Assembly (NCBI RefSeq): GCF_964340395.1
Contig: NC_135564.1
Coordinates: 2,381,501-2,445,500, forward strand
Length of the DNA stretch: 64,000 bases
From: Glandiceps talaboti
Lineage: Eukaryota; Hemichordata; Enteropneusta; Spengelidae
Direction of reading: 5' to 3'
Shown: positions 8,554-20,328 of the stretch, in pieces
Layout: each line of letters begins with the position of its first letter
Numbering within the stretch: the stretch's first letter is position 1
Made by a program: the position numbers and the translations under genes
Notes under the pieces: generated by a model
The model's input: only the letters and a program-made list of their open reading frames with translations
Told to the model about the DNA's origin: nothing
Database searches by the model: none

Positions 8554-11500
8554 ATGGACTCGGAAAGACTGTGTAATTTTTGTAAAAATGGAAAAGAGAG
8601 AGAAACTGACTGTGGGCATTTATACGTCCATGGCAAATATGCCGCCCATCATAAATGTATGGTAAGTAGTAAAGTTAACCATTATACGAATTTGAGATAT
8701 TTTGTCAAGCTGACACCAAGCACATAGATTTTAACACTGAGGTTGCGTCTGAGTGCAGTTCAAAATAGCGCCCTCTGTATTTCATCTAAGACAACGATGT
8801 AAAACTGGTATCAGATCATGCTAACGGTCAAGCGAGTTAGTTAATTTGTACACAATGTGTATACAAAATATGACACATTCTCTAGTCCCCACCCCACTAT
8901 CAAATTGTGTACCCCTACCAATGAGTACACAAAATATGACAAATTCTCTAGTCCCCACCCCACTATCAAATTGTGTACCCCTACCAATGTGTACACAAAA
9001 TATGACACATTCTCTAGTCCCCACAAATATACAAATACATGGTTTTTTGTTTTTGTGTGAATTTGTGGTGATATACCTTTATTTTAGATAAAATCTTCGT
9101 AAAAAGTCAATGCACATTGATTGGTTTCAAAGTTTTATAGTTTGCAAATCCTGTGGACCATCCTAGAAAATAATGATTTCTGCAAAGAATTAATGCAGTA
9201 TCATCAATTACTGACAAATTTTCCAAAGTGTTCCCCTACAACAACATTCCTTTTTGCGGCAAATGTGAAAGTAGATCATACCTACTTTATGGCAGAAATG
9301 AACATCTACTGTCTGTACTGTGTGTGGATTAGGATTTATGGGAATACAATTTATCAGTTTCAGCCATTTCTAGGTTTGTCAGTCTTTGTATTTTCAACCA
9401 ACCAACCAACCAACCAACCAACCAACCAACCAACCAATCAACCAACAAACAAACAAACACACAAACAACAAACAAACACTAATCAACCAACCAACCAACC
9501 ATTCAATCAGTCAACCAACCAATCAACCAACCAACCAACCAACCAACCAGTCAGTCAGTCAGTCAATCAATCAATCAGTCAGTCAATCAATCAATCAATC
9601 AATCAATCAATCAATCAATCAATCAATCAATCAATCAATCAATCAATCAATCAATCAATCAATCAATCAATCAATCAATCAATCAATCAGTGTGTAAAAT
9701 GAATGTTTGACAAAATTAGATGTTATTATACTTTGGTCATATTCTCTCTAATCAAGTATTTGATATATATGATGTTCTACATGTTATAATGTTCTGAGTC
9801 CTTCGCTATCTGTAATTATTCTATTCAAGTTGTATTCAAGTAATCTATACCAACCAGAAGATTCACAAGAACAGGAACACTTTGGGAAAGACTCAGGATT
9901 TCAAACTGCACGAGTCAAAAAGGAAATGAAGAGAGGAAGCAAACTGGTATTTAGTTATGTTTATCTATCTATCTTTCTGTTATTTGATTTCTGCATTCAC
10001 ACATATATGGATAAGATGAATACAAAGAAAATTATTACTTTATTAATTTGACAAATATAATATCAAAGTAGTGTGTGGTTCATCTCTTCCCATTCTCATT
10101 TCTGTAGTCATGTGCTAAAGAAACTTGCAGGAAGAAGGGGGCAACTGTTGGTTGTGAGGTGAAAAAATGCAAGTCAACCTATCACTATCCATGTATGAAA
10201 TCAGAAGGCAAGTTTGTAAAAATTAACAAAGGCAGGTAAGGAAACATTATTTAATGCTGTAATAAATGAAAATGGTATGTATCAAATGTTATGATTTTGA
10301 TGCAAGTGAAACAACTTTTGTATGTATGAAAATCAATTTCTACCATAACATCATTGTGAAAATATTTTGTAGATAGCCGAGCTTATACTGAAGATCACTG
10401 AACTGCACCTGTGAAAAATAAGCATACGTACATTAAATATATATATTTTTTTCTACAGGGTGCAGTTCAGTTATCTTCAGTGTAAGCTGAAAGAATCAAT
10501 TACATACAACTACAAATACGCAAGTGTTCACAAAAGCTTTCAAGTAGAACCTCTAGCCTTGTTCAATTGCTGCCACTAGAGGGCATACTGTTCACAAAAA
10601 CTTTCGACTAGAACTTCTAGCCTTATCCAATTGCTGCCACTGGTTTGCTAGCAAGGAAAGTAAGTCTGATCAAAGTACCTCAATCGATGTAGTCTTATCA
10701 GCAGGTGAATACAAAATAAAGAACAATGAATTGAATTGAATTGAATTGAAATTTATTCCACCAGAAGAGAAAAATATATACACAAACTCTGAAAGCAATG
10801 GATAAAACATTTCTGGTGAGGGCCATGGAAATAGTTCGTAGGAACTAATCAATGTCCATGGACCGTACATGTAGATAATAAATGCAAATTGTTATCAGTG
10901 TGGCTTGGTCAGGAAAGTTTGCTTATTGTTTGTATTGTGTTGTCATAGTGCTAAAAATACACTGCCTGACTGTTAACTTAAGTGTCCTAAAGACACCTCA
11001 GCTGTTCACTAAAGTGTAAAATGGCAATGAAACAAATTCCCATTTTAAGCAGTCTATTATGACCCTAGAAACATGTCACACCATACATTGGTCAACACTG
11101 ATGTGTGAGGGCGCCCAGTCATGGTGCATCTTACAGACTAACACTAATCCAGTCAACCAGTCCTTACCTGGGAATCATCATTATCATTCTCAAATGCTGA
11201 TAATATTATACCTAATTTCTGCTTTTTACAGTGATCAAACATTCACAGCATATTGTGAAAAACACCTCCCTCAGATTCCTGATGATGCGGAGATATTAGA
11301 CATGGAGAATGCAGATGGTGATGAAAACGAAGATGACGACGATGATGATGTTGATGATGATGATGATGGTGATGGTGATGATGATGATGATGATGGTGAT
11401 GGTGATGGTGATGATGATGATGATGATGATGATGATGATGATGATGATGATGATGATGATGATGATGGTGATGATGATAGCAATACAGACTTATGCAGCC

Positions 11501-20328: not shown

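What the first reader, a model, noticed from the sequence alone, without database searches (positions are those of the whole stretch)
8554..20328. GREB1-family protein with its own ePHD reader and apparently intact permuted helicase motifs
One gene joins a PHF6-type extended PHD finger, an acidic linker with a SUMO-interacting motif (IIVISDDDDEE), an SF2-like core in permuted order (DECH, SAT, QxxGRxxR, then AxxxxGKT) and a glycosyltransferase-like C-terminus (VGYARLF, LDDN). As I recall vertebrate GREB1, it lacks the ePHD and has degenerate residues at motif II (DHAHW-like) and motif VI. This version may therefore be a working ATPase coupled to a transferase and targeted to chromatin. That would be a candidate nucleic-acid or chromatin glycosylation machine ancestral to the hormone-receptor cofactor.
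Basis: partly seen in the sequence, partly recalled or inferred. Interest (0 to 1): 0.88.

Follow-up and report, generated by a model that had tools for sequence, protein, structure and literature searches.

The report
DNA-binding finger fused to GREB1-like helicase-glycosyltransferase
An animal genome carries a gene that joins a DNA-binding type of zinc finger to a helicase-type motor and a sugar-transferring enzyme of the GREB1 kind, with the motor signatures intact that the same animal's true GREB1 has lost; neither activity has been tested.

Summary
Domains: PHF6-type ePHD (PF13771, 2.4e-14), cpSF2-GREB1 (PF20692, 2.4e-93), TAGT glycosyltransferase (PF20691, 7.6e-14). Motifs II, III, V, VI, I stand in permuted order and are intact.

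The interpretation needs one large correction: the gene is not GREB1. The same genome has a separate GREB1 orthologue on C15, with motifs II, III, V and VI degenerate as in sloth GREB1, and three more motif-intact paralogues on C8. A quick tree separates the two GREB1s from the rest (100). Intact motifs are common in this sister family: 121 of 143 retrieved proteins have all five in permuted order. In none of the 143 did I detect an ePHD (precomputed Pfam and a rough pattern).

Best reading: a nuclear, DNA-engaged SF2 ATPase coupled to a glycosyltransferase acting on DNA bases or chromatin proteins; GREB1 is the branch that lost its motor. Activity, chemistry and the joint transcript are inferred.

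The parts
8554..20328 (+). ePHD-cpSF2-TAGT gene, 9 exons, 2132 aa (alternative 2029 aa)
   Evidence: GT-AG splices and phases
8554..8661 (+). exon 1, first zinc ligands of the ePHD (CNFC at 8572)
9830..9946 (+). exon 2, ePHD linker
10108..10235 (+). exon 3, PHD half of the ePHD
11232..11530 (+). exon 4, last ePHD ligands (YCEKH 11251-11265), then an Asp-rich tract
12490..12676 (+). exon 5, N-terminal region shared with the C8 tandem paralogue
13087..13219 (+). exon 6
13638..18633 (+). exon 7: linker, cpSF2 core and TAGT (reads on to TAG 18753-18755 in the 2029-aa form)
19200..19407 (+). exon 8, Lys-rich, NLS-like
   Evidence: KKKR and KKPR
20106..20328 (+). exon 9, acidic C-terminus
13875..13907 (+). 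SIM-like IIVISDDDDEE
   Evidence: motif name recalled, no binding shown
14037..16754 (+). cpSF2-GREB1 domain (two profile stretches, 14037-16409 and 16425-16754)
14379..14399 (+). motif II ADECHWG
14475..14492 (+). motif III VSATPF
16269..16295 (+). motif V KGRMGDTFP
16365..16391 (+). motif VI QELGRMCRY
16677..16703 (+). motif I (Walker A) AEPQIGKTG, C-terminal to motif VI
17343..18086 (+). TAGT glycosyltransferase domain (PF20691), with LDDN at 17622-17633
   Evidence: phage DNA glucosyltransferase family phrog_842 E 1.7e-5

Best explanation
The gene encodes a two-enzyme nuclear protein. Shown by sequence: a PHF6-type ePHD, an acidic linker, a circularly permuted SF2 core with intact ATPase motifs, and a TAGT-family glycosyltransferase. 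Inferred: the ePHD (and perhaps SUMO) holds it on DNA or chromatin; the SF2 core uses ATP to move along or open DNA or chromatin; the TAGT in the same chain then transfers a sugar from a nucleotide sugar to a TET-oxidised DNA base or to a chromatin protein. It is a member of an animal family that is sister to GREB1; GREB1 is the branch whose motor decayed while its transferase was kept.
For: Domain hits. All five core motifs intact here and in three paralogues of the same genome, and in permuted order in 121 of 143 retrieved proteins; 140 of the 142 with a Walker A have a downstream DD(N/H). The own GREB1 orthologue has DQAH, TPT, GQHTAGETWP, QEIGLVCQY and GREB1 is a separate clade. ResIII (SF2) profile passes its cut-off on the motif II-III side in 3 of 4 proteins tried. 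TAGT matches phrog_842, beta-glucosyl-HMC-alpha-glucosyltransferase, in 4 of 6 proteins tried. A TET/JBP dioxygenase is encoded in the genome. PHF6 ePHD2 binds dsDNA (PMC6222470, passages).
Against: No RNA, structure or activity data. Putting motif I back before motif Ia did not raise the SF2 profile scores: ResIII fell slightly in all 4 proteins (e.g. 20.0 to 19.7 bits), although the alignments lengthened in some. The window protein itself is below the ResIII cut-off. phrog_842 is not seen in L029 or P0005. No helicase or glycosyltransferase of known structure is found by sequence. No relative carries a detectable ePHD, so the ePHD is not needed for family function.
Confidence: 0.55

Rival explanations
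1. It modifies proteins only. The TAGT is a protein O-glycosyltransferase for chromatin factors, as reported for GREB1 and the oestrogen receptor, and the SF2 core remodels protein-DNA complexes; no DNA base is modified.
For: The closest studied relative, GREB1, is linked by title to ER-alpha glycosylation (Shin et al. 2021; title seen in a reference list; paper not held).
Against: The TAGT scores against a phage DNA glucosyltransferase family and a TET enzyme that could make the base substrate is present; neither excludes protein targets.
Confidence: 0.35
2. Exons 1-4 belong to a separate ePHD gene (or an occasional isoform) and the core gene starts near exon 5, as its relatives do.
For: An ePHD gene with introns at the same three places and phases lies on the other strand just downstream; none of the 143 relatives shows an ePHD; the C8 tandem paralogue begins with the exon 5-like region.
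Against: Exon 4 ends in a donor whose phase fits exon 5. In the C8:18.29 Mb paralogue an unbroken 1336-aa frame runs from an ePHD-like CSKHC through an acidic stretch into the core, although that ePHD is sub-threshold and its visible splice meets a stop.
Confidence: 0.13
3. A scaffold: the motifs are conserved for nucleotide or DNA binding but the protein does not turn over ATP, or its transferase is dead.
For: GREB1 shows that the family tolerates loss of motifs II and VI; its helicase core is described as without catalytic activity (PMC6163654, passages).
Against: Motifs II, III, V, VI and I are kept together in most family members, which binding alone would not require.
Confidence: 0.2
4. 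A genome-defence factor: an expanded, divergent family that marks or unwinds invading DNA.
For: Probable tandem copies in corals (same longest-contig length for P0005, P0026, P0087, P0140 and for P0013, P0020, P0043) and a tandem pair on C8; partner domains vary (ankyrin, ZZ, ePHD).
Against: No expression or selection test was made; no defence gene neighbourhood was examined; PADLOC was not searched.
Confidence: 0.15

Closest known systems
GREB1 / GREB1L (vertebrates; orthologue on C15 of this genome)
   Same: Permuted SF2 core plus TAGT (PF20692, PF20691); Walker A kept in both; LDDN here, LDDS in the own GREB1, SDDS in sloth
   Different: GREB1 has PF15782, PF20688 and PF20267, no ePHD, and degenerate motifs II, III, V, VI; separate clade
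Motif-intact cpSF2-TAGT proteins of stony corals and the annelid Owenia
   Same: Same core and order, all motifs; about 26-39% identity over shared parts
   Different: No ePHD detected; some carry ankyrin repeats (corals) or a ZZ domain (Owenia)
PHF6 extended PHD fingers
   Same: Complete zinc-ligand pattern and linker, 4nn2 E 4.3e-18
   Different: PHF6 is not joined to a helicase or glycosyltransferase (recalled)
Phage beta-glucosyl-HMC-alpha-glucosyltransferase (phrog_842) and kinetoplastid base-J glucosyltransferase (recalled)
   Same: TAGT region matches phrog_842 at 1.7e-5
   Different: No fused helicase (recalled); no direct tblastn match among 50,697 phage records at E up to 1; base-J enzyme not compared here

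Membership tests
cpSF2-TAGT family (Pfam PF20692 + PF20691) | permuted SF2 core profile above cut-off | tested here: met
   314.5 bits against 26.2
cpSF2-TAGT family (Pfam PF20692 + PF20691) | TAGT profile above cut-off | tested here: met
   52.6 bits against 27.5
GREB1 orthologue | GREB1-specific domains PF15782, PF20688, PF20267 | tested here: not met
   absent from scans of exon 7, exon 9 and the first 414 aa; exon 8 not scanned
GREB1 orthologue | groups with GREB1 in a tree | tested here: not met
   own C15 GREB1 and sloth GREB1 apart from 19 others, SH-aLRT 100 (quick tree)
SF2 ATPase | motifs I, II, III, V, VI intact | tested here: met
   coordinates; motif definitions recalled
SF2 ATPase | core recognised by a conventional SF2 profile | tested here: inconclusive
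   ResIII 20.0 bits against 22.5 for the window, above cut-off in 3 relatives; un-permuting gives no gain
SF2 ATPase | two RecA folds | not testable with these tools
   structure prediction switched off
SF2 ATPase | ATP hydrolysis | not testable with these tools
   needs purified protein
PHF6-type ePHD | zf-HC5HC2H profile and PHF6 similarity | tested here: met
PHF6-type ePHD | dsDNA binding | not testable with these tools
   known for PHF6 ePHD2 (PMC6222470)
DNA base glycosyltransferase | similarity to known DNA glucosyltransferases | tested here: met
   phrog_842 E 1.7e-5; seen in 4 of 6 family proteins; weak
DNA base glycosyltransferase | sugar transfer to a hydroxymethylated base | not testable with these tools
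   a TET/JBP enzyme that could make the substrate is encoded

The most novel reading that the evidence does not exclude
Animals possess an ATP-driven DNA glycosylation enzyme: a DNA-bound SF2 motor that presents TET-oxidised bases to a glycosyltransferase in the same chain, making a base-J-like mark, with GREB1 as its motor-dead sister.
Probability: 0.22. Interest if true: 0.92.

Novelty: new variant of a known kind. Interest (0 to 1): 0.6.

Why it matters
Vertebrate GREB1 carries a helicase-like core described as without catalytic activity (review PMC6163654, passages seen), and what its transferase does is debated. An animal with four motif-intact sister genes beside one degenerate GREB1 lets the two questions, what the motor did and what the cofactor does, be tested apart within one genome. 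The intact proteins are the natural place to ask whether TAGT sugars go onto DNA or onto protein.

Tried and rejected
GREB1 itself: rejected on domains and tree. Viral, phage or prokaryotic origin: patterns from alignment A1 matched 36 stretches in viral contigs and 23 in prokaryotic genome contigs, none encoding a relative; no phage record matches the TAGT by tblastn. Fusion in other species: a search on the ePHD region gave 10 candidates, none at E 0.001; it is limited by shared words and by protein length, so a weak negative. A second ePHD fusion in this genome: the C8:18.29 Mb paralogue has an ePHD-like exon (L030:7341-7502, PF13771 E 0.0028, below cut-off) and its core frame begins CSKHC, but the joined stretches scored less (0.049), and the only splice that I can see, by eye, passes an in-frame TAG. 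I call it a possible remnant. Un-permuting the core gave no score gain. Solved structures by sequence: no helicase or glycosyltransferase, best E 0.28 and 0.061. NCBIfam: one meaningless hit at 0.03. Papers: Iyer et al. 2013, the recalled source of the TAGT and cpSF2 names, and Shin et al. 2021 are not held. No paper of the held library has both 'GREB1' and 'ePHD'. The listings (titles and abstract starts) showed nothing on motif-intact invertebrate cpSF2-TAGT proteins; this says nothing about papers outside that library. A first tree run stopped unfinished; the tree used is the quick one.

Full report
What is there. On the + strand, exons 8554-8661, 9830-9946, 10108-10235, 11232-11530, 12490-12676, 13087-13219, 13638-18633, 19200-19407 and 20106-20328 are joined by GT-AG splices in consistent phase and encode 2132 aa. 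If exon 7 is read on, it stops at 18753-18755 and the protein has 2029 aa. The longer form uses a good donor (AAG|GTGAGA) and adds a tail with KKKR and KKPR and an acidic end. I think it the likelier form, without transcript data.

Domains. Residues 6-131 are a complete PHF6-type ePHD (PF13771, 53.8 bits against 29.1; 4nn2, 4.3e-18). An Asp-rich tract and a linker with IIVISDDDDEE follow. Then come cpSF2-GREB1 (2.4e-93) and TAGT (7.6e-14). The motif order is Ia-like TARFNMLQFQT, II DECH, III SAT, V GRMGDTFP, VI QELGRMCR, I AEPQIGKTG, so the permutation is cut between motifs I and Ia. The motif names are recalled SF2 nomenclature. A test by re-ordering did not help: the ResIII score fell slightly in all 4 proteins tried, although the native motif II-III side alone passes the ResIII cut-off in 3 of them, not in the window protein.

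Does the ePHD belong? Exons 5 and 6 are part of the family: residues 216-400 match the N-terminus of the C8 tandem paralogue (phmmer 2.7e-8, the only one of 144 sequences at E up to 10; tblastn 3e-5). The question is therefore only the exon 4 to exon 5 splice, whose phase fits. The paralogue at C8:18288266-18292273 has a 1336-aa open frame that starts with CSKHC, like the last zinc ligands of an ePHD, and runs through an acidic stretch into the core. An ePHD-like exon lies upstream of it, but below cut-off, and the visible splice meets an in-frame stop. The neighbour gene on the minus strand, from 26814, carries an ePHD 45% identical over 139 residues with introns at the same three places and phases. 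A genome search with this ePHD found only these two C17 genes and one place on C2 at E up to 0.001 (14 candidates). Local duplication or exon capture, in either direction, is the simplest origin.

Relation to GREB1. The genome has 17 matches to PF20692 at five loci. The one on C15 (minus strand, 6485640-6493642) is split into many exons and covers nearly the whole profile. Sloth GREB1 matches there and further upstream in pieces between its residues 88 and 1574, with 57-66% identity at 88-216, outside the cpSF2 and TAGT domains. It reads DQAH at motif II, TPT at III, GQHTAGETWP at V and QEIGLVCQY at VI, but QVGKTG at I and LDDS in the TAGT. Sloth GREB1, the only vertebrate sequence seen, reads DHAH, TSF, GMDPHGESLP, QELGLAALF, QVGKTG and SDDS. 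The loss is thus shared by this animal and a mammal. The window gene and the three C8 genes are intact: DECH or DEAH, SAT or TAT, GRMGDTFP, QELGR(M/L)CRY, AEPQIGKTG, DD(N/H). In a quick tree (21 rows, 1226 columns, LG+G4, SH-aLRT, no bootstrap) the two GREB1s stand apart (100). The window gene, the C8:18.29 Mb copy and a clade that includes the named corals group together (97) with the order among the three unresolved (10); the tandem pair's place is weak (72). Own GREB1 filled 706 and the C8:18.29 Mb copy 768 of 1226 columns; the GREB1 rows differ in amino-acid make-up; rooting on GREB1 was my choice. The window gene is a paralogue of GREB1, not a form of it.

The family elsewhere. Two searches gave 143 proteins: 52, where only the 7998 best candidates were scored, and 91 more among the 120 listed of 132. 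Those with names are stony corals (Oculina, Acropora, Stylophora, Porites, Montipora), the annelid Owenia fusiformis and one sloth GREB1; most have no name. Strict motif patterns over all 143, fragments and GREB1 included: I 141, VI 139, V 137, III 130, II 127; all five in permuted order 121. Of the 16 misses at II and the 13 at III, 9 each are proteins under 1750 aa. Other long proteins miss one motif (for example P0022, P0039 and P0043 at II, P0007 at III, P0080 and P0102 at V, P0104, P0105 and P0132 at VI) and may be true losses or variants. A hydrophobic-DD(N/H) site follows in 140 of the 142 with QIGKTG. None of the 143 shows an ePHD in its precomputed Pfam list or by a rough pattern on its first 400 residues; neither check is sensitive to a divergent finger.

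Function. The TAGT matches phrog_842, beta-glucosyl-HMC-alpha-glucosyltransferase, in 4 of 6 proteins tried: the window piece 1.7e-5, P0045 1.6e-5, L031 0.00096, L027 0.002; not L029 or P0005. The genome encodes a TET/JBP dioxygenase on C24 (two exon matches over the cut-off). PHF6 ePHD2 is reported to bind dsDNA (about 13 uM) and not histones (PMC6222470, passages). These favour a DNA substrate, but protein glycosylation, as the title of Shin et al. 2021 reports for GREB1 (seen in a reference list), is a live rival. Motif conservation argues for ATP hydrolysis; nothing here measures it.

Verdict. The finding is real and well described. The correction is that this is a motor-intact sister of GREB1 coexisting with a degenerate GREB1, and that intact motifs are usual in this little-known family. 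What is unusual is the ePHD partner and the side-by-side contrast within one genome.

Noticed in passing
window 22076-26814 (-): Neighbour gene with its own PHF6-type ePHD (PF13771 5.7e-14), 45% identical to the one in the finding with the same intron places and phases, followed by a tandem-repeat acidic region; that the ORF 22076-23473 belongs to the same gene is assumed.
   Followed up: partly
L026-L029 (C8:7773000-7805000): Tandem pair of motif-intact cpSF2-TAGT genes without a detected ePHD; the second has a long acidic and repeat-rich C-terminus.
   Followed up: partly
L030:7341-7502 and L030:8767-9999 (C8:18.29 Mb): Sub-threshold ePHD-like exon upstream of a third motif-intact paralogue; apparent in-frame stop at the junction, possible remnant of an older fusion.
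   Followed up: partly
P0005, P0026, P0087, P0140; P0013, P0020, P0043: Several cpSF2-TAGT proteins of Oculina patagonica and of Acropora muricata share the same longest-contig length, so probably lie in tandem arrays; many family proteins carry ankyrin repeats.
   Followed up: no
P0045, P0047: The two Owenia fusiformis proteins end in a ZZ zinc finger (PF00569), another partner domain.
   Followed up: no
window 9380-9690, 12020-12280, 13350-13620: Long microsatellite-like tracts (CAAT-, CAATA- and GTAGA-type) in the introns of the gene.
   Followed up: no
window 38733-39419 (-): ORF with collagen-like Gly-X-Y repeats followed by a stretch that may be C1q-like; not scanned.
   Followed up: no
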